Assembly (NCBI RefSeq): GCF_037392515.1
Contig: NC_090288.1
Span: 2,563,501 to 2,627,500 of the forward strand
DNA from: Haliotis asinina
Taxonomy: Eukaryota > Mollusca > Gastropoda > Lepetellida > Haliotidae
Direction of reading: 5' to 3'
DNA: 64,000 nucleotides
Under the pieces are notes generated by a model, which saw only the letters and a list, made by a program, of their open reading frames with translations, was not told the DNA's origin and ran no database searches. A program made the translations under genes and the position numbers. Positions 42,310-61,434 of this stretch are shown piece after piece (within the stretch, counting starts at the first letter, position 1; each line of letters starts with the position of its first letter).

Positions 42310-42733
42310 CTTAGTTCTAGAGAGGCAACCATTCCAGCCTCTATGATTACTCCTGTTCCAATCTCTAGAAAGCAGATAAACTTTTATAGAACATCCCCCA
42401 ACATCTCCAACTAACCCAGACAATAAAGACAAAAAAAGACTACCGCTCCTCGTCACCAGGTGTCACGGGTGTTTTTTATTTGTTTAGTTCCCCCACAATG
42501 AATTATGGCCCGCCCAAGATACGTGGTTATTTATTCGTCCTTTACCAATATATTCCACTCCCAGGTTTGATGACGTTACTCTAAACAACTGCATTACTTG
42601 ATAGAGGAAGGTTCCTAATGGAGTGCTAAAGGGTCAAAACGCAGTTCCGTGAAAGTCAACTTTTGCACCCCCGGAAGGGTAATGGTGGATACATCATGGG
42701 TTGCAAATGCGCAAAAAGGTGAATCGGAGCTAC

Positions 42734-42771
<38 letters not shown>

Positions 42772-43321
42772 AGCTCAAATGATAGCGGAAAGTTCCTGAT
42801 GGAGTGCTAGAGGGTCAAAACACAGTTCCATGAAAATAAACTTTTGCATCCCCGGAAGGCTAACGGTGGATACATCATGGTTTGCAAATGCGCAAAAAGG
42901 TGATTCGGGGCTACTTTTTTTATAAAAAAAACAAAACAAAACAAAACAGCTCAAATGATAGCGGAAGGTTCCTGGTGGAGTGCTAGAGGGTCAAAACGCA
43001 GTTCCATAAAAGTCATCTTTTTCGTTTTCTATGCAAAAAGTTGAATAGGACAAATATACCAAAACAATTTCTCATTTTCTGAATGTTAGAACTAACTTCC
43101 CACCTTGCACATGTGCAGCAAGAGTCTTGAGCAGAAAAATGTTATAGATACTATAACTAGCACAACTGGCTATGGAAAGATCACAGCTGTGAAGACTGCT
43201 GTTGACAGAGCAGTGCAAGTCCAGATGGAAGATGGGTGGCTATGATGTAACAGAGGTAGAATATTCTCTCCAAGCACTGCATACAGAAACACATAGACAA
43301 CAAGGACTGAACTGCCGATGC
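42310..43321 (+). repeat. 1.01-kb direct repeat, left copy, flanking viral array
   Basis: Nearly identical to 58772-59783, from CTTAGTTCTAGAGAGGCAAC to GGACTGAACTGCCGATGC. Inside are three imperfect ~180-bp units (starting near 42609, 42790, 42967), each ending in an A-tract; the first is a 33-base poly-A. Viral capsid sequence begins at the next base. Could be a long duplication of the target site, a terminal repeat of an unknown element, or a product of the assembly. No gene recognised. Confidence 0.9.
42609..43015 (+). repeat. three ~180-bp A-tract units inside left direct repeat
   Basis: Each unit: GGTTCCTAATGGAGTGCTA..GGGTCAAAACGCAGTTCC..GCAAATGCGCAAAAAGGTGA..CTACTTTTTT-A(n)-CAGCTCAAATGATAGCGGAA. 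Repeated at 59069-59460 in the right copy. Confidence 0.85.
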
Positions 43322-45628
43322 AATGTCAAACATCAGATCAAAAAATTAGACCCAGTGGGTGCAGTCGAAAGAAGCTCATACGATACCTTAACAGAACAAG
43401 ATAAAAAGAACATAGAAATAGCTAAAAGAGTATTTGGCGTGCACAAAAGACCTAGAAAAGTAAGACCACGCAGACCAACATTAGTAGACATTGAAAAAGC
43501 AGAACAAGAAAAACGAAAACAACAACAAATACAACAACAACGCATACACGAACAACAACGTAGAAAACAAGAAAAAATACAACAACATAGAAATGCAGCA
43601 AATGCACAATTTCAAAGATACATGCAAAGACATAAACAAGGAAGCACCATAAAATCACTCCCATGGACAAAAAAAAAACAAAAAAAAAGAAAAGAACAAC
43701 CACCACAGAAAATTACAACTCACAATTCCGAAACACAAGCATGGGCCAACTACTTCGATCAAAGACTCAGAAAACTATACAAAATGCAACCCACAAAAAA
43801 AAACTTAAGACTACGGCAACAATTATTAAACTACAAACAAAGAACATTAACATACCAAACAGATGCCAAAAAACAACATTTATGGAATCAATACCACAGA
43901 TCGAACTTCAGAATAACATTGCAAAAATATCTTGCAGGAAACACCCAACAAGGAACACACAACATGTCACAACAAAGCAGCAGCACAGTAGCAGGATTAG
44001 GAACAGTACAAGATGACGTCATAGGAGATGACGTATCTGGGTCAGGGCCAGCAAGGCAAGAAACAACAATAAGAGACAGAACAGAACACTACGAAAGGTT
44101 CAACACCATCAACGAAACGTACGAAAAAAGTATGTGGATTATTCTACCAGTATACACTGAAAACACATGCGAATACTACTGCAACAATCTACCTAAAAAA
44201 GTCAAAATATCACGAGGAAACAACAAAGTAGAAACAACATTAAATGCAGAAAAAGGATGGGAAGATCCCAAAGCGGAATTCTACCAAGGAAATCCACAAG
44301 ACTACAAACCAGACAACTTAAACCAAATTAAAATAGAATGGTTCTCACCATTTTCCTTCATACCATACAACAGATGTGCAGCCAGCATGACTATCGCAGA
44401 AATGAAATATTTCGAACAAAGAGCAATCAAATACAGAGTCAAAAGATTCGGGTTCGAAATCAACGAAATGCAAGGACATTTCGATGCACCACCAGTAACA
44501 GAAAATCAACCAAGAGTATCCATACCACAAGACTTCAGAATACTGGCGAACGTAGACAGCGACCACAGTCTAACACCACTCAACATATCAACAAAAATGA
44601 AAGACATAAAAAAAGCACAAAGTGGATACGATGGAAGAGTCATGGAAAACGTATCAAACAGAGAATCGCACAACAAAAACTTCACACAACCACTACCAAC
44701 TGACCTCAATGAATGCGTACTACCCAGACTAGTGATTGGAGGAACATTCCCAAAACAATGGCTAGAGGAAAACACTGTAACAACAGACGAAGAAAACATA
44801 GACTGGAACAAAATAGGAAGAACAGAAATGGATCCAACCATTCTATACGACATCTACAACGACCACGAAACAACAACAGTACCATCAACTACAGGATTCT
44901 CATACGAGTTTTGGAACCCAAGCAAAGAATGGATCCTAAACACGGTAACGTACGAAAGAAGTCACAAACCATGCAAAACAGAAAACAACGTACCACTATC
45001 ACAAAAAACATGGGAACAACTAGGACTGCAAGCAGCATCAACGCAAGAACATTGGACAAACGACTGGGATCTGTCTAAAGTAAGAAAACAATACCGCACA
45101 GATAACTTCCACGCAACAACAGGGTTAAACTACCACTTCCCAGAACAAGCTCCACTAGCAGCACTTAGCATATATCCAATGTTCATCAACAATGGAAAAA
45201 GCATACAATTAGTTAACGGATTCGTACAAGCCAGAATCACTTATACAGCTGAAGTGGAATTAATGGTACAAAACTACATACCACTATTCCCCAACTTCAT
45301 GCCAAGAATACAATATCACCTGATGGAAAGCCACAACAACAGAGAAAAACTAATACACAGCAACAGACAAGAAGAAGAAGACGAAAGACAAATAACAATG
45401 GGACAACACTTCATACCAGGAGACTGGCCACTACAACCAGGAATAGAACCAAGTTCGCTGGACGCAAGCAGAAACATAGTATGTGATGCAACAGGAAGAC
45501 CAATAGGAGACCAAATAAAAATGCAAAGCAGAATAGAAAACCCACAAATACTAAAGGCAAAAGAAACAACTGAGCTAGAGAGTGAAAGTTCGGGAGATGA
45601 GCCAACAAGAAAAAAGATACGAATATAA
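43202..45628 (+). CDS. capsid-like VP, copy 1 (5'-truncated, fused to flanking repeat)
   Basis: An 808-codon open frame. The first ~40 codons come from the flanking direct repeat; viral sequence starts at 43322, about 47 codons into the full VP seen in copy 3. Order: DPVGAVERSSYDTLTEQDKK region, a Gln/Arg/Lys-rich coiled stretch, a basic KKKQKKRKE tract, an MSQQSSSTVAGLG start-like Met, then a ~550-residue domain ending in an acidic/basic tail. A second, divergent lineage (49528-50001) keeps the C-terminal third well, so this part is under constraint. No PLA2 motif is seen. Called capsid from size, position after NS1 and weak resemblance to parvoviral VP C-termini; not proven. The frame is intact through an A-tract where copy 3 is 2 nt shorter. 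Confidence 0.6.
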   Translation: MTEQCKSRWKMGGYDVTEVEYSLQALHTETHRQQGLNCRCNVKHQIKKLDPVGAVERSSYDTLTEQDKKNIEIAKRVFGVHKRPRKVRPRRPTLVDIEKAEQEKRKQQQIQQQRIHEQQRRKQEKIQQHRNAANAQFQRYMQRHKQGSTIKSLPWTKKKQKKRKEQPPQKITTHNSETQAWANYFDQRLRKLYKMQPTKKNLRLRQQLLNYKQRTLTYQTDAKKQHLWNQYHRSNFRITLQKYLAGNTQQGTHNMSQQSSSTVAGLGTVQDDVIGDDVSGSGPARQETTIRDRTEHYERFNTINETYEKSMWIILPVYTENTCEYYCNNLPKKVKISRGNNKVETTLNAEKGWEDPKAEFYQGNPQDYKPDNLNQIKIEWFSPFSFIPYNRCAASMTIAEMKYFEQRAIKYRVKRFGFEINEMQGHFDAPPVTENQPRVSIPQDFRILANVDSDHSLTPLNISTKMKDIKKAQSGYDGRVMENVSNRESHNKNFTQPLPTDLNECVLPRLVIGGTFPKQWLEENTVTTDEENIDWNKIGRTEMDPTILYDIYNDHETTTVPSTTGFSYEFWNPSKEWILNTVTYERSHKPCKTENNVPLSQKTWEQLGLQAASTQEHWTNDWDLSKVRKQYRTDNFHATTGLNYHFPEQAPLAALSIYPMFINNGKSIQLVNGFVQARITYTAEVELMVQNYIPLFPNFMPRIQYHLMESHNNREKLIHSNRQEEEDERQITMGQHFIPGDWPLQPGIEPSSLDASRNIVCDATGRPIGDQIKMQSRIENPQILKAKETTELESESSGDEPTRKKIRI

Positions 45629-45768
45629 AAGACATTCGCGTTCGAAAAAAAAAGCGAACAACTAAAAGAACATTCGCATTCAAGATATATATACAGTATA
45701 TATAAACCAATATTTTTATCGCGAGGTTCGATACGAGTCCTATGTTAAACACATCACTCGAACCTCGA
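45629..45768 (+). repeat. ITR, right type, partial (after VP copy 1)
   Basis: Starts just after the VP stop: AAGACATTCGCGTTCGAAAA, TATATATACAGTATATATAA, then one CGAGGTTCGATACGAGTCC unit. Breaks off at 45768 into an inverted VP fragment. Confidence 0.75.
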
Positions 45769-45769
45769 A

Positions 45770-45868
45770 CATATTTTAGACAGATCCCAGTCGTTTGTCC
45801 AGTGTTCTTGCGTTGCTGCTGCTTGCAGTCCTAGTTGTTCCCATGTTTTTTGTGATAGTGGTACGGTG
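45770..45868 (-). pseudogene. inverted VP fragment
   Basis: Reverse complement of 44994-45080 (middle of VP). A second inverted fragment with the same left edge variant lies at 58650-58768. Confidence 0.85.
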
Positions 45869-46595
45869 GATCCTAAACACCGAACACCGTTTTATTCTTG
45901 AACGCGGATAGTTCGGAAAGCGACGAACCAACAAGAAAAAAACAGAGAACGTAAAAGAACATTCGCGTTCAAGAATAAAAAACTAACAGGGAAAAGAACA
46001 TTCGCGTTCAAGGATAAAAAACTAAAAGGGAAAAGAACATTCGCGTTCAAGAATAAAAACTAACAACAAAAAGAACATTCAAGATTCGCATTACAAGTTA
46101 TAGTTAATACAGTATATATAGTATATATAGTATATATAGTATATATAGTATATATAGTATATACAGTATATATAGTATATATAGTATATATAGTATATAT
46201 AGTATATATAAACCAATATTTTTATTGCGAGGTTCGGTTCGAACCCTATGTTAAACACATCACTCGAACCCCGAACCTATAAAAATAGATTCGCATTCAA
46301 CCTCTGTCTTTCAACTGTTAATAAACCAATATTTTATCGTGAGATTCGATTCGAGTCCTATGTTAAACACATTACACGAACCTCGAACCTATACAAATAG
46401 GTTCGAAACGTCCATAAAACCACAAGCTCTAAAAACTACATACGCACGTACGAGACCGAACCCCACGTGTTCGAACCGCTACTTTGCTTATTCTATTATT
46501 CGTTTAAACTCCCGAACATTCCATCGAAAAATTTTGATTTTGCAACATTGTATCCTCGAACGATTTTGCAACATTGTATCCTCGAACAATCAACC
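45869..46595 (+). repeat. right-type ITR of a third lineage with VP C-terminal codons
   Basis: Near 45907-45954 there is a short reading ending SDEPTRKKQRT-stop, a diverged form of the VP C terminus (GDEPTRKKIRI-stop). Then three ~50-bp repeats with AAGAACATTCGCGTTCAAG (45955-46080), a TATATAGTA microsatellite (46108-46208), two TTCGA-rich units and an arm ending at the AACC of the palindrome centre. It is clearly less similar to the other ITRs than they are to each other, and has a 28-bp tandem duplication near 46534-46586. Confidence 0.7.
46108..46208. repeat. (TATATAG/TATAC) microsatellite
   Basis: About ten 10-bp units AGTATATATA. Confidence 0.95.
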
Positions 46596-46660
46596 GGTTG
46601 ATTGTTCGAGGATACAATGTTGCAAAATCAAAATTTTTCGATGGAATGTTCGGGAGTTTA
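46540..46660. repeat. palindromic tail-to-tail ITR junction
   Basis: Perfect centre CAATCAACCGGTTGATTG between 46595 and 46596; arms continue outward (TTTTGCAACATTGTATCC / GGATACAATGTTGCAAAA; CCATCGAAAAATTTTGAT / ATCAAAATTTTTCGATGG). Typical of two viral ends joined. Confidence 0.9.
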
Positions 46661-47394
46661 AATGAATAATAGAGTAAGCAAAGTAGCGGTTCGAATGCGT
46701 GAGGTTCGGTCTCGTATGTGCATATAGGTTTTCTTATAGCTTTTTTTTTTCGTACCTTTTTTATAGGTTCGAGGTTCGTGTAATGTGTTTACATAGGACT
46801 CGAATCGAATCTCATGATAAAATATTGGTTTATTAATAGTTGAAAGACAGAGCTTGAATGCGAACATATTTTTACATGTTCGAGGTTCGAGTGATGTGTT
46901 TAACATAGGACTCGTATCGAACCTCGCGATAAAAATATTGGTTTATATATACTGTATGTAATCTTAAATGCGAACAGAATTTTACATGTTCGAGGTTCGA
47001 GTGATGTGTTTAACATAGGACTCGTATCGCACCTCGCGATAAAAATATTGGTTTATATATACTGTATATATATCTTGAATGCGAATGTTCTTTTAGTTGT
47101 TCGCTTTTTTTTTTCGAACGCGAATGTCTTTTATATTCGTATCTTTTTTCTTGTTGGCTCATCTCCCGAACTTTCACTCTCTAGCTCAGTTGTTTCTTTT
47201 GCCTTTAGTATTTGTGGGTTTTCTATTCTGCTTTGCATTTTCATTTGGTCTCCTATTGGTCTTCCTGTTGTATCACATACTATGTTTCTGCTTGCGTCCA
47301 GCGAACTTGGTTCTATTCCTGGTTGTAGTGGCCAGTCTCCTGGTATGAAGTGTTGTCCCATTGTTATTTGTCTTTCGTCTTCTTCTTCTTGTCT
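46596..47394 (+). repeat. ITR, left type, complete (~799 nt)
   Basis: Reverse complement of 52057-52854. Includes two units of CGATAAAAATATTGGTTTAT, TTCGAGGTTCGA blocks and, at 47131-47394, the antisense of the last ~87 VP codons. The inner edge (…CTTCTTGTCT) is identical in the second array unit at 53352. Confidence 0.85.
47030..47072 (+). promoter_or_regulatory. candidate CCAAT/TATA element in left ITR
   Basis: CGCGATAAAAATATTGG followed by TTTATATATACTG, pointing towards NS1 (~360 bp upstream of its ATG). Repeated at 46925-46955. Function inferred only. Confidence 0.3.
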
Positions 47395-47433
47395 AAAAAT
47401 AATAATAAAATAAAACAAATCTACCCAAAACAA

Positions 47434-49116
47434 ATGTGGCCAAACACGCAAAAAATGAAGAATCCACACGGTTGGATAAAGTACGTACAAACCACACCCA
47501 GAAAGATAGTAGAATGCACTAGCAGGTTCCGTGAATTAGCGAAACAAAACAAACCAGACACCACAACGGAACCGGAACCGGAACCGGAAACACACACATC
47601 ACCAACAACAACAACAACAAAATGTGCAAACAGCCTAAAGTTTCTGATAGATCTAATAAAGCAACACAACCTCAAACATGCAGGACAAATTCTACAGCTA
47701 TACAACGATGACAAACTCAACGACAAACAAACAAAACACCTTTTTGACATTATTGCCCAAAGCAATTACAATACGCTCGTGCAAAAAGCACTCAGCCTAG
47801 AGCAGCAACGGAGTCAGAGTCTGACTTATGACCAACTCCTAAACGAATACACGAACACTCACTCGGAACACGAAAATGAACAGCAGTACGAATCAGTACA
47901 AAAATCGATAGACACATTCCATAAACTCATGGAACACAACGACATAAAAACATCAGATCTAGTAAGGGACTTGCATCAAGTCTTAAACAAAACACAAAGC
48001 AAGAAAAACACGTTCGTGTTTTACGGACCACCCAATGCAGGAAAAAGCATGGTGGCCAGATCGTTACTACCAATAGCACGCTTCTACGGGGAAGCAAAAT
48101 TGACTGGAAACACACAATTTATCTGGCAAGACTGTACAGATAGAAATGTCATTATCGTAGAAGAGCCATGCCTAATAGACGAGAACACAATGGAAGAGGC
48201 CAAACTTATTTTCGAAGGGGCCGACACAATGGTTAGACAGAAATGTAGACCAGATATACTCCTAAAACGAACACCACTCATTGTAACCACAAACAGCAGC
48301 TTAACAAAATACTATCCAAACCAAAATTCAGCCTTTAAGGCCAGAACTCACTTATACAAAATGAAGCCGGCACCGTTTCTAAAGAAAATAACAAAACCAT
48401 TGAATCCACTTATGTGGAATGCAATTTTTGCTGACGCTTACAAAGAATCAGACTCGGATTGCGTCTCCGATGACGATTCGGATTGCCAAATCCTTCACAT
48501 CGATGAAGCACCACCAAACACTCCGGTCTCCGACGAAATCGATAGCGACTTCGATTCCGAAGGAGACGCGGAAATATTACAATTGGTTGAGCCAGAAGTC
48601 AATATTAAAGATAACAAAAATGACCCTCCCCTTTCTATTCGCAGGACCCCAACTGCCGCCGATCCAGCCCAGATGGTGGCATCAGACATACGGCCGATTG
48701 CCGCCGAACATGGAACGGTGGCTCCACAGGTTCGATGCAGTGAACGGAGTGGCGAACGAAGCGTGGAAGAACATCTACCAGCTAATGGGGATCTTCTTCT
48801 GCATGGCAGTAGAATTCTACCCAGAGGAAGCGGCGGAACTGTACCACAAGACAGACATGGACAATTACTGGATAGCATCGGTCTACAATCCGAAAACGAA
48901 TCCCTTCATTCCGCAGCTGATACAATACAAGGGGGGGAACCTGTCCACAATCGCCCAACACATGGAATGGACCAAGAGGAAACAAGCACGCGAACACCTG
49001 ATGCTAGTGCGGCCCAAAACTCACAAGGGGATGAAGAAAACACTCCTTCAATAAAAGAAGAAATAAAACAGGTGAATATTTTAAACGATATTCATTGGTA
49101 TGAGTTTCATACTTAG
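47434..49116 (+). CDS. NS1-like SF3 helicase, copy 1
   Basis: 560 residues from the ATG at 47434, 40 nt inside the ITR edge. The frame is open 28 codons further upstream but that part is antisense VP/ITR. SF3 helicase motifs: Walker A GPPNAGKS at 198-205, Walker B VIIVEEP at 239-245, B' around KLIFEGADTMVRQKCR (257-272), motif C PLIVTTNSS at 281-289. This is the parvovirus NS1/Rep type (DNA unwinding and packaging in the nucleus). A TEPEPEPE repeat lies near 45-52; residues ~370-420 are Asp/Ser/Glu rich. No HUH nickase motif is visible in the first 197 residues, where parvoviral NS1 normally has one and is longer. The C-terminal third overlaps another ORF in a different frame. Confidence 0.85.
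   Translation: MWPNTQKMKNPHGWIKYVQTTPRKIVECTSRFRELAKQNKPDTTTEPEPEPETHTSPTTTTTKCANSLKFLIDLIKQHNLKHAGQILQLYNDDKLNDKQTKHLFDIIAQSNYNTLVQKALSLEQQRSQSLTYDQLLNEYTNTHSEHENEQQYESVQKSIDTFHKLMEHNDIKTSDLVRDLHQVLNKTQSKKNTFVFYGPPNAGKSMVARSLLPIARFYGEAKLTGNTQFIWQDCTDRNVIIVEEPCLIDENTMEEAKLIFEGADTMVRQKCRPDILLKRTPLIVTTNSSLTKYYPNQNSAFKARTHLYKMKPAPFLKKITKPLNPLMWNAIFADAYKESDSDCVSDDDSDCQILHIDEAPPNTPVSDEIDSDFDSEGDAEILQLVEPEVNIKDNKNDPPLSIRRTPTAADPAQMVASDIRPIAAEHGTVAPQVRCSERSGERSVEEHLPANGDLLLHGSRILPRGSGGTVPQDRHGQLLDSIGLQSENESLHSAADTIQGGEPVHNRPTHGMDQEETSTRTPDASAAQNSQGDEENTPSIKEEIKQVNILNDIHWYEFHT
48620..49054 (+). CDS. small overlapping ORF in NS1 (NP-like position), copy 1
   Basis: 144 codons from an ATG with A at -3, in the +1 frame relative to NS1 and inside its C-terminal third. 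Composition looks protein-like: Trp-rich start (PRWWHQTYG), then MERWLHRF, AWKNIYQLMGIFF, a hydrophobic/aromatic stretch and a basic end (RPKTHKGMKK). In several parvoviruses an NP ORF overlaps NS1 in this place; homology is not shown. The overlapped NS1 frame is low-complexity here, which suggests that this frame is the constrained one. A TTCTATTCGCAG acceptor-like site lies just after its start (48640s). Confidence 0.55.
   Translation: MTLPFLFAGPQLPPIQPRWWHQTYGRLPPNMERWLHRFDAVNGVANEAWKNIYQLMGIFFCMAVEFYPEEAAELYHKTDMDNYWIASVYNPKTNPFIPQLIQYKGGNLSTIAQHMEWTKRKQAREHLMLVRPKTHKGMKKTLLQ
49050..49069 (+). terminator. possible poly(A) signals
   Basis: Two AATAAA hexamers (TTCAATAAAAGAAGAAATAA) at the end of the overlapping ORF. 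Could end short NS transcripts. Confidence 0.35.
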
Positions 49117-49173
49117 CTAAAATTAGTATTGACCCATACTACCTTAACAAAAAAAAACTCTTATATTTTTCAG
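49072..49173 (+). other. candidate viral intron
   Basis: CAG|GTGAAT donor at 49071/49072 and a TTATATTTTTCAG acceptor at 49173; ~100 nt with a pyrimidine tract and a CTACCTTAAC branch-like site. The acceptor is followed directly by the ATG of the next ORF. Donor and acceptor are both phase 0, so splicing would join NS1 codons in frame to that ORF. Identical at 55030-55131. Confidence 0.4.
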
Positions 49174-49415
49174 ATGCTCACAAAATATGACCTTGGACTA
49201 CTGGACAAAAAGGATAAGAAAATTCTCAAACATCTGATGGTCAGCGACCTAGAAGATTGGGACATCAGAACGACGAAATCAACCATAGAAAGTCTCCGCT
49301 GCGTACGATGCACAGAAAACTCAAGAATGCTCTACCACGGATGCCATTCGGGACAAATACTATGCTGCGCGTGTGGCATACCAGAAATGGACCACAACGA
49401 CACCTGGGATTGCGA
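49174..49415 (+). pseudogene. Cys/His-rich small ORF, copy 1 (3' truncated)
   Basis: Same as copy 2 (55132-55458) up to codon 80, then broken at 49415/49416 by a fragment of a second viral lineage. Confidence 0.75.
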
Positions 49416-49527
49416 TACCGGTTCTGGGTTGAGATATACTAGATATATCTAGTACTAGTACTAGGAAATTTCAATAAATAAATAATGAGTACAGTAGAGA
49501 CAACGGACACAAGTACGATGCGACAAC

Positions 49528-50001
49528 ATGCATACCACAACCAATCTGACCTTCCAGTTCCCGGAATACGCACCCATATGCAGTCTCATGGTATACCCGA
49601 TGTACACCACCAGTGGAACAACCATGACACACACGACGGGATTCGTACAGGCCAGAATAACATACAGAGCGCAAGTAGAAATGCTGATACAAAACAGAAT
49701 ACCACTTTTCCCAAACTTCAATCCCAGAATGCAATTCTGGAACATCAACGCGCATCACAACAGAGCCAAATTCTCAACAGACAACGACAGAAAAACAGAA
49801 GACGACAGACAACAAAGTATGCAATCGAAGTTTGTACCAGGAGACTGGCCAGACCAACCAAGCATCAAACCAACCATCTTCCAGGCAGATCGACACATCA
49901 GCGTGGATGAACCAGGAATCAACACCGATGAAATGGCAGCAGCATCTTGGTCCTTACAAGAACCGAGATACGTGGCAGCTGACAATGACAATGTAGATTA
50001 A
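49528..50001 (+). CDS. VP C-terminal domain, second lineage (fragment)
   Basis: 157-codon reading. Aligns with VP copies over the part marked by FPEYAP (FPEQAP), GFVQARITYRAQVEML (GFVQARITYTAEVELM), IPLFPNFNPRMQF (IPLFPNFMPRIQY) and FVPGDWPDQPSIKP (FIPGDWPLQPGIEP). Well under full identity, so a different virus rather than a mutated copy. Its start is a deletion junction; an ATG (MSTVETTDTS) at 49485 is in another frame. Confidence 0.75.
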   Translation: MHTTTNLTFQFPEYAPICSLMVYPMYTTSGTTMTHTTGFVQARITYRAQVEMLIQNRIPLFPNFNPRMQFWNINAHHNRAKFSTDNDRKTEDDRQQSMQSKFVPGDWPDQPSIKPTIFQADRHISVDEPGINTDEMAAASWSLQEPRYVAADNDNVD

Positions 50002-50257
50002 ATAACGCGTTCGAGTTCGAGAGTGTAAAACTAGAAGAATAAAAAAACACGTTCGATACGTGAGTGATCGAACACGTATCAATAAAAAAAATGTTCGAGT
50101 TCTTATTCGAGAAAAAAAAGGAGAGCAAAAAAAACTCTAAGTACGACACGGGGGGACCCCCCGGTTCGACACAGGTTCGTCTACTGTACTCATTATTTAT
50201 TTATTGAAATTTCCTAGTACTAGTACTAGATATATCTAGTATATCTCAACCTTTCTG

Positions 50258-50519
50258 AGAAGATGGTTGGTTTGATGCTTGGTTGGTCTGGCCAGTCTCC
50301 TGGTACAAACTTCGATTGCATACTTTGTTGTCTGTCGTCTTCTGTTTTTCTGTCGTTGTCTGTTGAGAATTTGGCTCTGTTGTGATGCGCGTTGATGTTC
50401 CAGAATTGCATTCTGGGATTGAAGTTTGGGAAAAGTGGTATTCTGTTTTGTATCAGCATTTCTACTTGCGCTCTGTATGTTATTCTGGCCTGTACGAATC
50501 CCGTCGTGTGTGTCATGGT
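50258..50519 (-). pseudogene. second-lineage VP fragment, inverted copy
   Basis: Reverse complement of about 49618-49879; truncated on both sides. Confidence 0.85.
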
Positions 50520-50672
50520 TGTTCCGGTTGAGATATACTAGATATATCTAGTACTAGTACTAGGAAATTTCAATAAATAAATAATGAGTACAGTAGACGA
50601 ACCTGTGTCGAACCGGGGGGTCCCCCCGTGTCGTACTTAGAGTACGTTTTGGCCAGACCAACCGGTTGAGAT

Positions 50673-52320
50673 CAGCACAGTAGCAGGATTAGGAACAGTA
50701 CAAGATGACGTCACAGGAGATGACGTATCTGGGTCAGGGCCAGCAAGGCAAGAAACAACAATAAGAGACAGAACAGAACACTACGAAAGGTTCAACACCA
50801 TCAAGGAAACGTACGAAAAAAGTATGTGGATTATTCTACCAGTATACACTGAAAACACATGCGAATACTACTGCAACAATCTACCTAAAAAAGTCAAAAT
50901 ATCACGAGGAAACAACAAAGTAGAAACAACATTAAATGCAGAAAAAGGATGGGAAGATCCCAAAGCGGAATTCTACCAAGGAAATCCACAAGACTACAAA
51001 CCAGACAACTTAAACCAAATTAAAATAGAATGGTTCTCACCATTTTCCTTCATACCATACAACAGATGTGCAGCCAGCATGACTAACGCAGAAATGAAAT
51101 ATTTCGAACAAAGAGCAATCAAATACAGAGTCAAAAGATTCGGGTTCGAAATCAACGAAATGCAAGGACATTTCGATGCACCACCAGTAACAGAAAATCA
51201 ACCAAGAGTATCCATACCACAAGACTTCAGAATACTGGCGAACGTAGACAGCGACCACAGTCTAACACCACTCAACATATCAACAAAAATGAAAGACATA
51301 AAAAAAGCACAAAGTGGATACGATGGAAGAGTCATGGAAAACGTATCAAACAGAGAATCGCACAACAAAAACTTCACACAACCACTACCAACTGACCTCA
51401 ATGAATGCGTACTACCCAGACTAGTGATTGGAGGAACATTCCCAAAACAATGGCTAGAGGAAAACACTGTAACAACAGACGAAGAAAACATAGACTGGAA
51501 CAAAATAGGAAGAACAGAAATGGATCCAACCATTCTATACGACATCTACAACGACCACGAAACAACAACAGTACCATCAACTACAGGATTCTCATACGAG
51601 TTTTGGAACCCAAGCAAAGAATGGATCCTAAACACGGTAATGTACGAAAGAAGACACAAACCATGCAAAACAGAAAACAACGTACCACTATCACAAAAAA
51701 CATGGGAACAACTAGGACTGCAAGCAGCATCAACGCAAGAACATTGGACAAACGACTGGGATCTGTCTAAAGTAAGAAAACAATACCGCACAGATAACTT
51801 CCACGCAACAACAGGGTTAAACTACCACTTCCCAGAACAAGCTCCACTAGCAGCACTTAGCATATATCCAATGTTCATCAACAATGGAAAAAGCATACAA
51901 TTAGTTAACGGATTCGTACAAGCCAGAATCACTTATACAGCTGAAGTGGAATTAATGGTACAAAACTACATACCACTATTCCCCAACTTCATGCCAAGAA
52001 TACAATATCACCTGATGGAAAGCCACAACAACAGAGAAAAACTAATACACAGCAACAGACAAGAAGAAGAAGACGAAAGACAAATAACAATGGGACAACA
52101 CTTCATACCAGGAGACTGGCCACTACAACCAGGAATAGAACCAAGTTCGCTGGACGCAAGCAGAAACATAGTATGTGACACAACAGGAAGACCAATAGGA
52201 GACCAAATAAAAATGCAAAGCAGAATAGAAAACCCACAAATACTAAAGGCAAAAGAAACAACTGAGCTAGAGAGTGAAAGTTCGGGAGATGAGCCAACAA
52301 GAAAAAAGATACGAATATAA
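50673..52320 (+). pseudogene. capsid-like VP, copy 2 (5'-truncated)
   Basis: Joins VP at the STVAGLGTVQDD region and is open to the normal stop at 52320; first in-frame ATG is at 50824. Differs from copy 1 by a handful of residues (K for N near the start, N for I at MTNAEM, M and R at MYERRH) and is closer to copy 3. Lacks the N-terminal third. Confidence 0.8.
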
Positions 52321-52854
52321 AAGACATTCGCGTTCGAAAAAAAAAGCGAACAACTAAAAGAACATTCGCATTCAAGATATATATACAGTATATATAAACC
52401 AATATTTTTATCGCGAGGTTCGATACGAGTCCTATGTTAAACACATCACTCGAACCTCGAACATGTAAAATTGTGTTCGCATTTAAGATTACATACAGTA
52501 TATATAAACCAATATTTTTATCGCGAGGTTCGATACGAGTCCTATGTTAAACACATCACTCGAACCTCGAACATGTAAAAATATGTTCGCATTCAAGCTC
52601 TGTCTTTCAACTGTTAATAAACCAATATTTTATCGTGAGATTCGATTCGAGTCCTATGTTAAACACATTACACGAACCTCGAACCTATAGAAAAGGTACG
52701 AAAAAAAAAGCTATAAGAAAACCTATACGCACATACGAGACCGAACCTCACGCGTTCGAACCGCTACTTTGCTAACTCTATTATTCATTTAAACTCCCGA
52801 ACATTCCATCGAAAAATTTTGATTTTGCAACATTGTATCCTCGAACAATCAACC
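52057..52854 (+). repeat. ITR, right type, complete (~798 nt)
   Basis: Begins inside VP copy 2 (52057), passes its stop, then carries the trailer, three TTCGA units and ends CGAACAATCAACCC. Matches the reverse complement of 46596-47394 nearly base for base. Confidence 0.85.
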
Positions 52855-53352
52855 CGGTAGAACATAGGACTCGTATCGAACCTCGCGATAAAAATATTGG
52901 TTTATATATACTGTATGTAATCTTAAATGCGAACACAATTTTACATGTTCGAGGTTCGAGTGATGTGTTTAACATAGGACTCGTATCGAACCTCGCGATA
53001 AAAATATTGGTTTATATATACTGTATATATATCTTGAATGCGAATGTTCTTTTAGTTGTTCGCTTTTTTTTTCGAACGCGAATGTCTTTTATATTCGTAT
53101 CTTTTTTCTTGTTGGCTCATCTCCCGAACTTTCACTCTCTAGCTCAGTTGTTTCTTTTGCCTTTAGTATTTGTGGGTTTTCTATTCTGCTTTGCATTTTT
53201 ATTTGGTCTCCTATTGGTCTTCCTGTTGTGTCACATACTATGTTTCTGCTTGCGTCCAGCGAACTTGGTTCTATTCCTGGTTGTAGTGGCCAGTCTCCTG
53301 GTATGAAGTGTTGTCCCATTGTTATTTGTCTTTCGTCTTCTTCTTCTTGTCT
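52855..53352 (+). repeat. ITR, left type, outer part deleted (~498 nt)
   Basis: Starts at GGTAGAACATAGGACTCG and reaches the same inner edge (CTTCTTGTCT) as the left ITR of unit 1. Includes the antisense VP end (53089-53352). Confidence 0.85.
52992..53032 (+). promoter_or_regulatory. candidate CCAAT/TATA element, unit 2
   Basis: Same CGCGATAAAAATATTGG-TTTATATATA arrangement as at 47030-47072, ~360 bp before the NS1 ATG. Confidence 0.3.
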
Positions 53353-53391
53353 AAAAATAATAATAAAATAAAACAAATCTACCCAAAACAA

Positions 53392-55074
53392 ATGTGGCCA
53401 AACACGCAAAAAATGAGGAATCCACACGGTTGGATAAAGTACGTACAAACCACACCCAGAAAGATAGTAGAATGCACTAGCAGGTTCCGTGAATTAGCGA
53501 AACAAAACAAACCAGACACCACAACGGAACCGGAACCGGAACCGGAAACACACACATCACCAACAACAACAACAACAAAATGTGCAAACAGCCTAAAGTT
53601 TCTGATAGATCTAATAAAGCAACACAACCTCAAACATGCAGGACAAATTCTACAGCTATACAACGATGACAAACTCAACGACAAACAAACAAAACACCTT
53701 TTTGACATTATTGCCCAAAGCAATTACAATACGCTCGTGCAAAAAGCACTCAGCCTAGAGCAGCAACGGAGTCAGAGTCTGACTTATGACCAACTCCTAA
53801 ACGAATACACGAACACTCACTCGGAACACGAAAATGAACAGCAGTACGAATCAGTACAAAAATCGATAGACACATTCCATAAACTCATGGAACACAACGA
53901 CATAAAAACATCAGATCTAGTAAGGGACTTGCATCAAGTCTTAAACAAAACACAAAGCAAGAAAAACACGTTCGTGTTTTACGGACCACCCAATGCAGGA
54001 AAAAGCATGGTGGCCAGATCGTTACTACCAATAGCACGCTTCTACGGGGAAGCAAAATTGACTGGAAACACACAATTTATCTGGCAAGACTGTACAGATA
54101 GAAATGTCATTATCGTAGAAGAGCCATGCCTAATAGACGAGAACACAATGGAAGAGGCCAAACTTATTTTCGAAGGGGCCGACACAATGGTTAGACAGAA
54201 ATGTAGACCAGATATACTCCTAAAACGAACACCACTCATTGTAACCACAAACAGCAGCTTAACAAAATACTATCCAAACCAAAATTCAGCCTTTAAGGCC
54301 AGAACTCACTTATACAAAATGAAGCCGGCACCGTTTCTAAAGAAAATAACAAAACCATTGAATCCACTTATGTGGAATGCAATTTTTGCTGACGCTTACA
54401 AAGAATCAGACTCGGATTGCGTCTCCGATGACGATTCGGATTGCCAAATCCTTCACATCGATGAAGCACCACCAAACACTCCGGTCTCCGACGAAATCGA
54501 TAGCGACTTCGATTCCGAAGGAGACGCGGAAATATTACAATTGGTTGAGCCAGAAGTCAATATTAAAGATAACAAAAATGACCCTCCCCTTTCTATTCGC
54601 AGGACCCCAACTGCCGCCGATCCAGCCCAGATGGTGGCATCAGACATACGGCCGATTGCCGCCGAACATGGAACGGTGGCTCCACAGGTTCGATGCAGTG
54701 AACGGAGTGGCGAACGAAGCGTGGAAGAACATCTACCAGCTAATGGGGATCTTCTTCTGCATGGCAGTAGAATTCTACCCAGAGGAAGCGGCGGAACTGT
54801 ACCACAAGACAGACATGGACAATTACTGGATAGCATCGGTCTACAATCCGAAAACGAATCCCTTCATTCCGCAGCTGATACAATACAAGGGGGGGAACCT
54901 GTCCACAATCGCCCAACACATGGAATGGACCAAGAGGAAACAAGCACGCGAACACCTGATGCTAGTGCGGCCCAAAACTCACAAGGGGATGAAGAAAACA
55001 CTCCTTCAATAAAAGAAGAAATAAAACAGGTGAATATTTTAAACGATATTCATTGGTATGAGTTTCATACTTAG
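53392..55074 (+). CDS. NS1-like SF3 helicase, copy 2
   Basis: 560 residues, offset 5958 bp from copy 1 and almost identical (one visible difference near the start, R for K at residue 9). All SF3 motifs are intact (Walker A GPPNAGKS at 198-205). Upstream and downstream context is the same as copy 1, but here the following ORF and VP are also present in full, so 53352-57764 is the best record of the unit's unique region. Confidence 0.85.
   Translation: MWPNTQKMRNPHGWIKYVQTTPRKIVECTSRFRELAKQNKPDTTTEPEPEPETHTSPTTTTTKCANSLKFLIDLIKQHNLKHAGQILQLYNDDKLNDKQTKHLFDIIAQSNYNTLVQKALSLEQQRSQSLTYDQLLNEYTNTHSEHENEQQYESVQKSIDTFHKLMEHNDIKTSDLVRDLHQVLNKTQSKKNTFVFYGPPNAGKSMVARSLLPIARFYGEAKLTGNTQFIWQDCTDRNVIIVEEPCLIDENTMEEAKLIFEGADTMVRQKCRPDILLKRTPLIVTTNSSLTKYYPNQNSAFKARTHLYKMKPAPFLKKITKPLNPLMWNAIFADAYKESDSDCVSDDDSDCQILHIDEAPPNTPVSDEIDSDFDSEGDAEILQLVEPEVNIKDNKNDPPLSIRRTPTAADPAQMVASDIRPIAAEHGTVAPQVRCSERSGERSVEEHLPANGDLLLHGSRILPRGSGGTVPQDRHGQLLDSIGLQSENESLHSAADTIQGGEPVHNRPTHGMDQEETSTRTPDASAAQNSQGDEENTPSIKEEIKQVNILNDIHWYEFHT
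54578..55012 (+). CDS. small overlapping ORF in NS1, copy 2
   Basis: 144 codons, identical in frame and product to 48620-49054. The conservation is explained by recent duplication and is not independent evidence. Confidence 0.5.
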   Translation: MTLPFLFAGPQLPPIQPRWWHQTYGRLPPNMERWLHRFDAVNGVANEAWKNIYQLMGIFFCMAVEFYPEEAAELYHKTDMDNYWIASVYNPKTNPFIPQLIQYKGGNLSTIAQHMEWTKRKQAREHLMLVRPKTHKGMKKTLLQ

Positions 55075-55131
55075 CTAAAATTAGTATTGACCCATACTAC
55101 CTTAACAAAAAAAAACTCTTATATTTTTCAG

Positions 55132-55458
55132 ATGCTCACAAAATATGACCTTGGACTACTGGACAAAAAGGATAAGAAAATTCTCAAACATCTGATGGTC
55201 AGCGACCTAGAAGATTGGGACATCAGAACGACGAAATCAACCATAGAAAGTCTCCGCTGCGTACGATGCACAGAAAACTCAAGAATGCTCTACCACGGAT
55301 GCCATTCGGGACAAATACTATGCTGCGCGTGTGGCATACCAGAAATGGACCACAACGACACCTGGGATTGCGAAACGAGGGAATGCTCCATCGACCTACA
55401 CTGGGCAACCGACCGCTACAATATCAAATTCAAAACAACCGCGCACGAACTTCTGTGA
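55132..55458 (+). CDS. Cys/His-rich small protein (RING-like?), copy 2
   Basis: 108 codons; ATG directly behind a TTTTTCAG acceptor-like site. Cys/His pattern: C43-x2-C46, C57-H58, C64, C65, C67, H74, C80, C85. The CxxC...CxH...CxxC spacing resembles the RING finger of IAP-type ubiquitin ligases or another zinc-binding fold; which one cannot be told by eye. The acceptor phase allows an in-frame splice from NS1. Overlaps the upstream-extended VP frame. Confidence 0.55.
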   Translation: MLTKYDLGLLDKKDKKILKHLMVSDLEDWDIRTTKSTIESLRCVRCTENSRMLYHGCHSGQILCCACGIPEMDHNDTWDCETRECSIDLHWATDRYNIKFKTTAHELL

Positions 55459-55579
55459 TTGTATTTCAAACGTAAATAAACTTATGCATAGTGTCAATGC
55501 ATTAAACTGCACTTCCTGCCATGTGATACTTTCAGAACGAGGCAGAAAGCTTCGGACGACGCCATTTGCAAACACAGGT

Positions 55580-58028
55580 ATGGGACTCTTGAAACTTGGT
55601 AAAAGCATAGCTAGATTAATAGGAAAGGCATCCAAAACAAAACCTGCTAAAGCAGCGGGCAGGGGATTCAAGAAACTAGTTGACAAAAAATTGGGAAAAA
55701 ACACAAAAGGCATCATACACAGCAATGTCAAACATCACATCAAAAAATTAGACCCAGTGGGTGCAGTCGAAAGAAGCTCATACGATACCTTAACAGAACA
55801 AGATAAAAAGAACATAGAAATAGCTAAAAGAGTATTTGGCGTGCACAAAAGACCTAGAAAAGTAAGACCACGCAGACCAACATTAGTAGACATTGAAAAA
55901 GCAGAACAAGAAAAACGAAAACAACAACAAATACAACAACAACGCATACACGAACAACAACGTAGAAAACAAGAAAAAATACAACAACATAGAAATGCAG
56001 CAAATGCACAATTTCAAAGATACATGCAAAGACATAAACAAGGAAGCACCATAAAATCACTCCCATGGACAAAAAAAAACAAAAAAAAGAAAAGAACAAC
56101 CACCACAGAAAATTACAACTCACAATTCCGAAACACAAGCATGGGCCAACTACTTCGATCAAAGACTCAGAAAACTATACAAAATGCAACCCACCAAAAA
56201 AAACTTTAGACTACGGCAACAATTATTAAACTACAAACAAAGAACATTAACATACCAAACAGATGCCAAAAAACAACATTTATGGAATCAATACCACAGA
56301 TCGAACTTCAGAATAACATTGCAAAAATATCTTGCAGGAAACACCCAACAAGGAACACACAACATGTCACAACAAAGCAGCAGCACAGTAGCAGGATTAG
56401 GAACAGTACAAGATGACGTCACAGGAGATGACGTATCTGGGTCAGGGCCAGCAAGGCAAGAAACAACAATAAGAGACAGAACAGAACACTACGAAAGGTT
56501 CAACACCATCAAGGAAACGTACGAAAAAAGTATGTGGATTATTCTACCAGTATACACTGAAAACACATGCGAATACTACTGCAACAATCTACCTAAAAAA
56601 GTCAAAATATCACGAGGAAACAACAAAGTAGAAACAACATTAAATGCAGAAAAAGGATGGGAAGATCCCAAAGCGGAATTCTACCAAGGAAATCCACAAG
56701 ACTACAAACCAGACAACTTAAACCAAATTAAAATAGAATGGTTCTCACCATTTTCCTTCATACCATACAACAGATGTGCAGCCAGCATGACTAACGCAGA
56801 CATGAAATATTTCGAACAAAGAGCAATCAAATACAGAGTCAAAAGATTCGGGTTCGAACTCAGCGAAATGCAAGGACATTTCGATGCACCACCAGTAACA
56901 GAAAATCAACCAAGAGTAACCATACCACAAGACTTCAGAATACTAGCAAACGTAGACAGCGACCACAGTCTAACACCACTCAACATATCAACAAAAATGA
57001 AAGACATAAAAAAAGCACAAAGTGGATACGATGGAAGAGTCATGGAAAACGTATCAAACAGAGAATCGCACAACAAAAACTTCACACAACCACTACCAAC
57101 TGACCTCAATGAATGCGTACTACCCAGACTAGTGATTGGAGGAACATTCCCAAAACAATGGCTAGAGGAAAACACTGTAACAACAGACGAAGAAAACATA
57201 GACTGGAACAAAATAGGAAGAACAGAAATGGATCCAACCATTCTATACGACATCTACAACGACCACGAAACAACAACAGTACCATCAACTACAGGATTCT
57301 CATACGAGTTTTGGAACCCAAGCAAAGAATGGATCCTAAACACGGTAATGTACGAAAGAAGACACAAACCATGCAAAACAGAAAACAACGTACCACTATC
57401 ACAAAAAACATGGGAACAACTAGGACTGCAAGCAGCATCAACGCAAGAACATTGGACAAACGACTGGGATCTGTCTAAAGTAAGAAAACAATACCGCACA
57501 GATAACTTCCACGCAACAACAGGGTTAAACTACCACTTCCCAGAACAAGCTCCACTAGCAGCACTTAGCATATATCCAATGTTCATCAACAATGGAAAAA
57601 GCATACAATTAGTTAACGGATTCGTACAAGCCAGAATCACTTATACAGCTGAAGTGGAATTAATGGTACAAAACTACATACCACTATTCCCCAACTTCAT
57701 GCCAAGAATACAATATCACCTGATGGAAAGCCACAACAACAGAGAAAAACTAATACACAGCAACAGACAAGAAGAAGAAGACGAAAGACAAATAACAATG
57801 GGACAACACTTCATACCAGGAGACTGGCCACTACAACCAGGAATAGAACCAAGTTCGCTGGACGCAAGCAGAAACATAGTATGTGACACAACAGGAAGAC
57901 CAATAGGAGACCAAATAAAAATGCAAAGCAGAATAGAAAACCCACAAATACTAAAGGCAAAAGAAACAACTGAGCTAGAGAGTGAAAGTTCGGGAGATGA
58001 GCCAACAAGAAAAAAGATACGAATATAA
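55580..58028 (+). pseudogene. capsid-like VP, copy 3 (full length, frameshifted)
   Basis: Only copy with the N terminus: the ATG at 55580 begins an amphipathic, basic segment (GLLKLGKSIARLIGKA) with a GRGFKKLVDKKLG repeat, then follows copy 1. At 56070-56088 the A-tract pair is 9+8 bases against 10+9 in copy 1, a loss of 2 nt, and the frame breaks; the rest reads from 56184 to the stop at 58028. The frame is also open upstream of 55580 to 55331. No PLA2 domain. Long A-tracts are prone to polymerase and assembly errors, so the break needs confirming. Confidence 0.7.
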
Positions 58029-58260
58029 AAGACATTCGCGTTCGAAAAAAAAAAGCGAACAACTAAAAGAACATTCGCATTCAAGATATATATACAGTAT
58101 ATATAAACCAATATTTTTATCGCGAGGTTCGATACGAGTCCTATGTTAAACACATCACTCGAACCTCGAACATGTAAAATTGTGTTCGCATTTAAGATTA
58201 CATACAGTATATATAAACCAATATTTTTATCGCGAGGTTCGATACGAGTCCTATGTTCTA
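57765..58260 (+). repeat. ITR, right type, outer part deleted (~496 nt)
   Basis: VP end, trailer and two TTCGA units, ending ...CCTATGTTCTA. The junction CTATGTTCTACCGGGTTGA is the reverse complement of the junction at 52850-52870. Confidence 0.85.
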
Positions 58261-58652
58261 CCGGGTTGATTGTTCGAGGATACAATGTTGCAAAATCAAA
58301 ATTTTTCGATGGAACGTTCGGGAGTTTAAATGAATAATAGAGTAAGCAAAGTAGCGGTTCGAACGCGTGAGGTTCGGTCTCGTATGTGCGTATAGGTTTT
58401 CTTACAGCTTTTTTTTTCGTACCTTTTTATAGGTTCGAGGTTCGTGTAATGTGTTTAACATAGGACTCGAATCGAATCTCACGATAAAATATTGGTTTAT
58501 TAACAGTTGAAAGACAGAGCTTGAATGCGAACATATTTTTACATGTTCGAGGTTCGAGTGATGTGTTTAACATAGGACTCGTATCGAACCTCGCGATAAA
58601 AATATTGGTTTATATATACTGTATATATATCTTGAATGCGAATGTTCTTTTA
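58261..58652 (+). repeat. ITR, left type, inner part deleted (~392 nt)
   Basis: Starts CCGGGTTGATTGTTCGAGG, the outer end of the ITR, and runs to GAATGTTCTTTTAA before breaking into an inverted VP fragment. Confidence 0.85.
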
Positions 58653-58768
58653 ACCCTGTTGTTGCGTGGAAGTTATCTGTGCGGTATTGTTTTCTTATTT
58701 TAGACAGATCCCAGTCGTTTGTCCAATGTTCTTGGTTTGTGTCTTCTTTCGTACATTACCGTGTTTTC
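58650..58768 (-). pseudogene. inverted VP fragments at right edge
   Basis: Two pieces in antisense: 58652-58731 (matches 57455-57540 reversed) and 58732-58766 (matches ~57335-57368 reversed). Confidence 0.8.
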
Positions 58769-58771
58769 CCT

Positions 58772-59783
58772 CTTAGTTCTAGAGAGGCAACCATTCCAGC
58801 CTCTATGATTACTCCTGTTCCAATCTCTAGAAAGCAGATAAACTTTTATAGAACATCCCCCGACATCTCCAACTAACCCAGACAATAAAGACAAAAAAAG
58901 ACTACCGCTCCTCGTCACCAGGTGCCACGGGTGTTTTTTATTTGTTTAGTTCCCCCACAATGAATTACGGCCCGCCCAAGATACGTGGTTATTTATTCGT
59001 CCTTTACCAATATATTCCACTCCCAGGTTTGATGACGTTACTCTAAACAACTGCATTACTTGATAGAGGAAGGTTCCTAATGGAGTGCTAAAGGGTCAAA
59101 ACGCAGTTCCGTGAAAGTCAACTTTTGCACCCCCGGAAGGGTAATGGTGGATACATCATGGGTTGCAAATGCGCAAAAAGGTGAATCGGAGCTACTTTTT
59201 TACAAAAAAAAAAACAAAACAAAAAAAAAACAGCTCAAATGATAGCGGAAAGTTCCTGATGGAGTGCTAGAGGGTCAAAACACAGTTCCATGAAAATAAA
59301 CTTTTGCATCCCCGGAAGGCTAACGGTGGATACATCATGGTTTGCAAATGCGCAAAAAGGTGATTCGGGGCTACTTTTTTTTAAAAAAAAACAAAAAAAA
59401 AAACAAAACAGCTCAAATGATAGCGGAAGGTTCCTGGTGGAGTGCTAGAGGGTCAAAACGCAGTTCCGTAAAAGTCATCTTTTTCGTTTTCTATGCAAAA
59501 AGTTGAATAGGACAAATATACCAAAACAATTTCTCATTTTCTGAATGTTAGAACTAACTTCCCACCTTGCACATGTGCAGCAAGAGTCTTGAGCAGAAAA
59601 ATGTTATAGATACTATAACTAGCACAACTGGCTATGGAAAGATCACAGCTGTGAAGACTGCTGTTGACAGAGCAGTGCAAGTCCAGATGGAAGATGGGTG
59701 GCTATGATGTAACAGAGGTAGAATATTCTCTCCAAGCACTGCATACAGAAACACATAGACAACAAGGACTGAACTGCCGATGC
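58772..59783 (+). repeat. 1.01-kb direct repeat, right copy
   Basis: Matches 42310-43321 with a few substitutions and A-tract length changes (the 33-base A-run is interrupted here). After GCCGATGC it continues into unique host DNA, so this copy carries the original right flank. Confidence 0.9.
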
Positions 59784-61110: not shown

Positions 61111-61434
61111 TTTGTTGGTGAATAGTCATTATGTTTTCCATCACACTGCCATCATTATGGACAAGCTATATTACTGAACTATAAGGTTACAGTACATGGT
61201 TGGCAACTTGGCAAGAAAATCAGACATGCTCGCTCAAACGGTCCATTAACATTTTTACAAATAACAAGTTCAATGTTGTTCGGTTGACTATTCTTTATTT
61301 TCAATACAACACAACTCAATGTTTACAGTTTGATCATGATGCTTCACTCACGGAGCAATCCACACAGTGTTCTCTCTCTAATCATGCTAATATTTAATCT
61401 GGATTCTGACCCAGTAATTCAGCACTAATATAGG

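What the first reader, a model, noticed from the sequence alone, without database searches (positions are those of the whole stretch)
42310..59783. Recent concatemer of parvovirus-like genomes in a mollusc chromosome
About 16.5 kb holds two NS1 copies, three VP copies and seven ITR segments, with the ~6-kb monomer (ITR 0.8 + unique 4.4 + ITR 0.8) readable from 53352 to 57764 plus ends. NS1 copies are offset by 5958 bp and almost identical. The virus-like unit (SF3 helicase, overlapping ORF, Cys/His ORF, VP) does not match any genome I know gene for gene. It could be an undescribed lineage related to Parvoviridae or Bidnaviridae.
Basis: partly seen in the sequence, partly recalled or inferred. 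Interest (0 to 1): 0.9.

Follow-up and report, generated by a model that had tools for sequence, protein, structure and literature searches.

The report
Integrated concatemer of parvovirus-like genomes
A stretch of host DNA carries about three linked copies of a small hairpin-ended DNA virus, related to parvoviruses but with an unrecognised capsid gene and no detectable DNA-nicking domain, set between two copies of the same 1-kb host sequence; the locus keeps unusually clear marks of how such a virus replicated and entered a genome.

Summary
Between two 1-kb host direct repeats (42305-43321, 58766-59783) lies a 15.4-kb array: one truncated, one rearranged and one full copy (unique part 53353-57764) of a parvovirus-like genome, joined through palindromic terminal repeats. 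NS1 matches Pfam Parvo_NS1 (5e-23). (1) The ITR centre is inverted in ITR1 and ITR3 relative to ITR2 (96.5-98.4% as reverse complement, 47-48% otherwise), and ITR2 has both flanking arms: AAV-type flip/flop and double-flank junction. (2) The ITR includes the last 264 bp of the VP candidate; NS1 begins at the ITR edge without a detectable HUH nickase. (3) Copy 2 holds a piece of a second virus (VP tail 43% identical over 150 aa). (4) The 1-kb repeats abut both viral ends and differ by 4 substitutions in 944 columns outside A-tracts: probably a target duplication, as reported for AAV. Best reading: a probably defective, hairpin-ended parvovirus derivative, amplified with related viruses and integrated recently. 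The VP has no significant relative in the searches made. Mollusc host, further copies and read support could not be tested.

The parts
42305..43321 (+). left copy of a 1-kb host direct repeat (contains 2.3 copies of a ~180-bp tandem repeat); its 3' end abuts the virus with a 2-bp overlap
   Evidence: 4 substitutions and 1 gap in 944 columns against 58766-59783 outside two A-rich tracts; 10 differences inside the tracts
43320..45772 (+). viral copy 1, 5'-truncated: later part of ORF3, VP, part of the right ITR; ORF3 and VP lie in one continuous frame here (ORF 43202-45628, whose start lies in host DNA)
   Evidence: 99.2% identical to 55722-58173 over 2454 columns
45365..47394 (.). ITR1, rearranged: copy-1 arm 45365-45772, inverted VP fragment 45772-45868, short tandem repeats, divergent (89%) ITR copy 46190-46561, then ITR1 centre and right arm 46590-47394
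47395..49415 (+). viral copy 2, NS region (NS1 ORF 47350-49116)
   Evidence: 1 substitution in 2021 bp against copy 3
49416..50672 (+). foreign insert from a second, related virus: VP C-terminus (ORF 49528-50001) with short inverted repeats of its own (49427-49498 / 50180-50251 / 50526-50597; 50134-50251 / 50526-50643)
   Evidence: 65 of 150 aa identical, E 7e-43
50673..52056 (+). viral copy 2, VP region, lacking its 5' part
   Evidence: 6 of 1384 differences against copy 3
52057..53352 (.). ITR2, shared by copies 2 and 3: two 492-bp arms, 100% inverted identity, around a 312-bp asymmetric centre (AAV-type double-flank junction)
53353..57764 (+). viral copy 3, full unique region (NS, mid region, VP up to the ITR)
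53308..55074 (+). NS1: SF3 helicase, first in-frame ATG at 53392 (residue 29 of the 588); Walker A at residue 226; no HUH motif found
54377..55012 (+). overlapping ORF in the +1 frame of NS1 (211 aa; 216-codon open run)
   Evidence: 0 of 5000 codon-preserving shuffles reach 216 codons (maximum 213); the other frame is ordinary (1604 of 5000). Only a sub-cut-off Pfam match (0.007)
55087..55458 (+). 123-aa Cys/His-rich ORF
   Evidence: no Pfam family above cut-off
55331..56209 (+). ORF3, 292 aa, lysine-rich; separate frame from VP in copy 3, continuous with VP in copy 1
   Evidence: no Pfam family above cut-off
56184..58028 (+). VP candidate, 614 aa; its last 264 bp lie inside the ITR
   Evidence: no significant relative outside the window
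57765..58652 (.). ITR3: 299-bp inner part with the VP tail, then terminal hairpin 58064-58652
   Evidence: 58029-58652 folded as DNA, z = -27.09, 0 of 20 shuffles as stable
58649..58766 (-). two short inverted VP pieces (57529-57440 and 57371-57338), perhaps the remnant of a tail-to-tail neighbour
58766..59783 (+). right copy of the 1-kb host direct repeat; its 5' end abuts the virus with a 1-bp overlap

Best explanation
A linear, hairpin-ended, parvovirus-like DNA genome, together with pieces of a related virus, was amplified into multimers through its palindromic ends and integrated into a host chromosome in an event that duplicated about 1 kb of target. The inserted units look like defective (copy-back) genomes: the left end, with the nickase part of NS1, was replaced by an inverted copy of the right end including the VP tail, so replication needed a nickase supplied in trans by a related virus. 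Shown from sequence, as assembled: multimer, hairpin, both centre orientations, double-flank ITR2, two-virus mosaic, helicase without detectable HUH, 1-kb direct repeats abutting both viral ends. Inferred: that the repeats are a target duplication (about 0.8), defectiveness (about 0.5), nickase in trans (about 0.5), AAV-like integration route (about 0.5).
For: Parvo_NS1 at 5e-23; AAV Rep40/68 are the best solved relatives. ITR2 has two 492-bp arms at 100% around a 312-bp centre; the centres of ITR1 and ITR3 match the reverse complement of the ITR2 centre at 96.5% and 98.4% but only 47-48% in the same sense. In AAV, joints between concatemer units are ITRs with a second flanking D, and mixed orientations occur in alternating repeats (PMC11575299, section 8). 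The terminal 624 nt fold with z = -27.09, 0 of 20 shuffles as stable. VP coding runs 264 bp into the ITR; AT skew flips sign in the left copy (-0.62 against +0.62). No HUH motif in 8 ORFs, no HUH or PolB family in 9 ORF translations, only weak motif hits in six frames; the relative P0002 has 168 residues upstream of the first aligned residue. Second-virus VP tail. Host repeats (4 substitutions in 944 columns) and viral gene copies (1 of 2021; 5, 6 and 11 of 1384) diverge to a similar degree. Viral unique DNA is not CpG-depleted (0.81) although the host is (0.36-0.38). [quoted passage not shown]
Against: No reads were examined, so the joins rest on the assembly. NS1 has a start codon 40 bp inside the ITR edge after an A/T-rich leader, which would also suit a native helicase-only gene. 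Inverted centres can also arise by recombination between inverted arms after integration. Divergence is uneven: 1 of 2021 bp in NS against 6 of 1384 in VP for copies 2 and 3 (Fisher p = 0.02), and ITR centres differ by 1.6% (ITR3) and 3.5% (ITR1) from that of ITR2, counting gaps, more than the genes; one clock does not explain this. AAV2 was reported to integrate mostly as single copies (PMC3918229, passages), although other sources describe concatemers. In head-to-tail AAV concatemers attributed to rolling circle, ITRs in a read share one orientation, unlike here. ITR part 58029-58652 and the host repeat share no more words than shuffles do, so there is no sign of site-directed integration.
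Confidence: 0.62

Rival explanations
1. The unit is the complete genome, or one segment, of an undescribed lineage that naturally has a helicase-only NS1 (as in bidnaviruses) and long ITRs containing the VP end; the nickase or polymerase is absent or sits on another segment. It would still be integrated as a concatemer.
For: NS1 has no detectable HUH and an ATG just inside the ITR; the bidnavirus S3H is a stand-alone protein without the nuclease domain (PMC4061559, passages); segmented parvoviruses and bidna-class viruses with several segments exist (PMC10267136 and PMC11071296, passages); both NS copies carry the same edge; the second virus also shows an inverted copy of part of its VP tail.
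Against: No PolB family in the ORFs scanned; bidnavirus ITRs are said not to form parvovirus-type hairpins whereas these fold strongly. Both NS copies probably come from one founder, so the shared edge is not independent evidence.
Confidence: 0.3
2. Assembly artefact: free viral DNA or a multimeric episome was joined to a host contig through repeats.
For: Long perfect palindromes and 1-kb repeats are typical places for misassembly; no reads were available.
Against: No N in the window; the host repeat ends at both viral ends with overlaps of only 1-2 bp; the four substitutions between the repeats and the private VP changes of copies 1 and 3 (5 and 6) show that the copies are distinct sequences.
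Confidence: 0.12
3. The virus inserted between two copies of an existing tandem host duplication rather than creating a target duplication.
For: The repeat contains a ~180-bp tandem array, so the region is duplication-prone.
Against: Both viral junctions fall at the repeat ends, and repeat divergence resembles that of the viral gene copies.
Confidence: 0.15

Closest known systems
Integrated or episomal AAV concatemers (Parvoviridae, Dependoparvovirus)
   Same: ITR junctions with a flanking arm on both sides and flip/flop centres (PMC11575299), rearranged concatemers (PMC2900306), reported target duplication, SF3 helicase closest to AAV Rep among solved structures
   Different: ITR far longer (888 against 145 bp) and containing VP coding sequence; NS1 without detectable HUH; VP without detectable sequence relation; two viruses in one array
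Bidnaviridae (Bombyx mori bidensovirus)
   Same: SF3 helicase without the nuclease domain; genome segment of about 6 kb (PMC4061559, passages)
   Different: no PolB found; hairpin ends; capsid relation not shown
AAV snapback / defective-interfering genomes
   Same: end-copying that duplicates one genome end in inverted form and loses other sequence; replication with Rep in trans (PMC8235507, passages)
   Different: here only about 300 bp inside the hairpin are copied to the other end, leaving a nearly full-length unit
Endogenous parvovirus-related sequences of invertebrates (PMC5013282, passages)
   Same: parvovirus-like sequences in animal data sets, also from marine molluscs branching outside known genera
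   Different: a multi-copy array with ITR ends and an apparent target duplication

Membership tests
Parvoviridae | NS1 with SF3 helicase domain | tested here: met
   PF01057 E 5e-23, 81.9 bits against a cut-off of 20; AAV Rep40/68 5e-13 to 2e-12
Parvoviridae | HUH nickase domain N-terminal to the helicase | tested here: not met
   no HUH motif in 8 ORFs; six-frame scan of copy 3 with ITRs gave one weak HNHY in a 40-codon run; NS1 begins at the ITR edge. A motif scan could miss a very divergent domain
Parvoviridae | hairpin telomeres with flip/flop | tested here: met
Parvoviridae | jelly-roll capsid protein homologous to parvovirus VP | tested here: inconclusive
   no significant match in Pfam, PDB sequences or the protein search (best PDB E-values 0.39 and 1.2, both antibodies); fold model unusable, pLDDT 29.9
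Parvoviridae | linear genome of about 4-6 kb | tested here: inconclusive
   unit of about 6.2 kb if the left end equals ITR3 (888 + 4412 + 888, from the coordinates); only the integrated form is seen
Bidnaviridae | stand-alone SF3 helicase without nuclease domain | tested here: met
[quoted passage not shown]
   no PolB family at E <= 1 in 9 ORF translations of the array; a loose DxD motif hit three acidic stretches, two of them in NS1; a second segment cannot be excluded
Bidnaviridae | ITRs that do not form parvovirus-type hairpins | tested here: not met
   strong hairpin, z -27.09
Endogenous viral element | viral DNA joined to host DNA on both sides | tested here: inconclusive
   met in the assembly; no reads available
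[quoted passage not shown]
   1-kb direct repeats abut both ends with divergence like that of the viral genes; empty allele not seen
Mollusc host | host genome of a mollusc | not tested
   The genome search did not complete; 30 of 70 host ORFs of 80 aa or more (list) scanned with Pfam gave no family above its cut-off

The most novel reading that the evidence does not exclude
A parvovirus-derived lineage that has permanently lost its nickase but kept hairpin, flip/flop telomeres, with the capsid gene running into the ITR and a capsid of an undescribed sequence family; it lives as a satellite or segment of related viruses that nick its ends in trans, and it enters chromosomes by a replicative route that duplicates about 1 kb of target.
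Probability: 0.22. Interest if true: 0.82.

Novelty: new variant of a known kind. Interest (0 to 1): 0.62.

Why it matters
Endogenous parvoviruses are, as I recall, mostly single decayed fragments. This locus keeps both hairpin orientations, a double-flank ITR joint, pieces of a second virus and an apparent target duplication, so replication and integration steps known mainly from AAV (recalled) can be read from one locus of an as yet unidentified host. If the missing nickase is a lineage trait, it would be an intermediate between parvoviruses and bidnaviruses; if it is a defective genome, it shows that such genomes can become part of a host chromosome.

Tried and rejected
LTR element: the 1-kb repeats enclose parvovirus-like genes and no reverse transcriptase appeared in the ORFs scanned; the repeat ends (read) do not look like LTR ends (comparison recalled). 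Site-directed integration through shared Rep-type motifs: 58029-58652 and the left host repeat share no more words than 200 shuffles at k = 8 to 11. Selection on the copies: 9 of 11 VP changes between copies 1 and 3 are replacements against 0.80 expected without selection, so no sign of constraint. Relatives: IMG/VR scans with NS1, A1, P0002 and A2 confirmed none of 6, 73, 2 and 40 pattern matches; tblastn of NS1 in the phage collection found nothing; the protein search gave 2 of 6599 candidates for NS1 and for VP none of 5184 at E <= 0.001 and none of 6687 at E <= 10 with a two-sequence alignment. PHROGs gave only weak NS1 matches (best 0.0031). Structure models of VP (pLDDT 29.9) and NS1 (33.6) were too poor to search with, so no fold search was run. 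Rfam at gathering thresholds: 0 matches. No SF3 tree was built: only two unnamed relatives and solved structures were at hand.
Full report
What is there. The window is gap-free. Self-comparison shows a 15.4-kb array, 43320-58766, between two direct repeats of about 1 kb, 42305-43321 and 58766-59783. Mapping of pieces of the full copy gives the order: host repeat; copy 1 without its NS half; rearranged ITR1; copy 2 (NS, a foreign insert, VP without its 5' part); ITR2; copy 3 complete; ITR3; two short inverted VP pieces; host repeat. NS copies differ at 1 of 2021 bp and VP copies at 5, 6 and 11 of 1384 bp.

Genes. NS1 (588 aa by the mechanical ORF; first ATG at residue 29) matches Parvo_NS1 at 5e-23 and papillomavirus helicase at 1.3e-11; the best solved relatives are AAV Rep40/68. 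The aligned stretch carries the helicase motifs (motif names recalled). Upstream of the helicase NS1 is about 109 residues shorter than Rep68 (residue 212 against 321). No HUH motif was found in 8 ORFs; a six-frame scan gave one weak HNHY in a 40-codon run. The relative P0002 aligns only from its residue 169. An overlapping ORF in the +1 frame is open for 216 codons; 0 of 5000 codon-preserving shuffles reach this, while the other frame is ordinary (1604 of 5000), so it is probably a real viral gene. ORF3 (292 aa) and VP (614 aa) are separate frames in copy 3 and one continuous frame in copy 1; one of the two states is presumably a mutation. VP has no significant relative in Pfam, the PDB sequences or the protein collection; a usable model was not obtained. 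That it is a capsid gene is an inference from its position.

Ends. ITR2 is a palindrome: 492-bp arms at 100% around a 312-bp centre that is not self-complementary (47.4% to its own reverse complement). The centres of ITR1 and ITR3 are the reverse complement of the ITR2 centre (96.5% and 98.4%; 47-48% in the same sense). The right end, 58029-58652, folds with z = -27.09 (0 of 20 shuffles); the pairing arms run from 58064 to 58652, and there the ITR match ends. AAV concatemers have such double-flank ITRs; in head-to-tail products attributed to rolling circle the ITRs of a read share one orientation, in alternating repeats they are mixed (PMC11575299, section 8). Mixed orientation here speaks for hairpin transfer or for joining of separate monomers rather than a single rolling circle; recombination between arms is not excluded.

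The ITR contains VP. The inner 264 bp of the right ITR encode the end of VP. The left ITR is the inverted copy: its AT skew is -0.62 against +0.62 on the right and +0.34 to +0.48 in the genes. So the repeat probably spread from right to left, and NS1 starts at its edge. The simplest reading is a copy-back genome in which the original left end with the nickase domain was replaced. Asymmetric snapback genomes are known for AAV (PMC8235507, passages). The rival is a native helicase-only lineage, as in bidnaviruses (PMC4061559, passages); no PolB family was found in 9 ORF translations and the ends are hairpins, so a bidnavirus assignment fails two tested features.

A second virus. The insert 49416-50672 encodes a VP C-terminus identical at 65 of 150 aa (E 7e-43), with short inverted repeats of its own. 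A divergent ITR copy (89%) sits at 46190-46561. At least one, perhaps two, related viruses were present when the array formed. They are candidates for the helper; this is inference.

Integration. The host repeats end at the viral ends with overlaps of 2 bp on the left and 1 bp on the right and differ by 4 substitutions, all transitions, and 1 gap in 944 columns outside two A-rich tracts, with 10 more differences inside the tracts. The viral gene copies differ by 0.05 to 0.8%. The unique viral part is not CpG-depleted (0.81; hairpin 2.19; host repeat 0.51) in a depleted host (0.36-0.38). This fits a recent event with a target duplication of about 1 kb. Partial target duplication is reported for AAV (Henckaerts 2009: title seen in reference lists; paper not held), and a review describes a template-switch model for integration (PMC5714925, passages). 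Densovirus DNA integrated in insect cells was scrambled (PMC5978394, passages), as in part here.

Results against this reading. NS and VP of copies 2 and 3 diverge unevenly (1 of 2021 against 6 of 1384, p = 0.02), and ITR centres differ by 1.6 to 3.5%, more than the genes; gene conversion, or founders that already differed, would be needed. AAV2 was found to integrate mainly as single copies (PMC3918229, passages). No motif shared between ITR and target was found. The ATG just inside the ITR edge suits a native short NS1 as well.

Known context. Parvovirus-related sequences from marine molluscs outside known genera were reported in 2016 (PMC5013282, passages). A 2024 preprint describes unusual parvovirus-like and bidna-class genomes (PMC11071296, passages). 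Searches for endogenous parvovirus arrays with target duplication or for mollusc examples (listing 3 of 3, 15 of 15, 15 of 83, 7 of 8 and 10 of 16 papers) showed no title on such a structure; I read passages of only some, so this is not a claim that none is in print.

What could not be done. The host genome was never reachable (20 tries), so host identity, copy number and relatives with a nickase domain remain open. No reads were available. No tree with named references could be built.

Verdict. A real, recent, multi-copy parvovirus-like integration in the assembly, with unusually well-kept replication and integration marks and an unplaced capsid candidate; possibly a new lineage, possibly a defective genome. 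Not filed as a member of Parvoviridae or Bidnaviridae, since a defining feature of each was tested and not met.

Noticed in passing
window 12034-12169 and 60748-60882: A dispersed inverted repeat, 82% identical over 136 columns, on both sides of the array; probably a host repeat family.
   Followed up: no
window 34493-35014: GC-rich minisatellite array (about 35-bp unit, 16 copies) with strong C bias.
   Followed up: no
window 46099-46210: Nine-base TATAGTATA array (12.4 copies) inside the rearranged ITR1, next to 39-bp repeats (45953-46080) that resemble the ITR at 80-86%.
   Followed up: partly
window 49427-50643: A second-virus VP piece in inverted orientation between perfect 118-bp inverted repeats (50134-50643), next to a unit 49427-50251 with perfect 72-bp inverted ends; might be two small defective genomes sharing one end.
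   Followed up: partly
window 1-42300 and 59784-64000: Host flanks: no Pfam family above its cut-off in 30 of 70 ORFs of 80 aa or more, CpG o/e 0.36-0.38 and many tandem repeats.
   Followed up: partly
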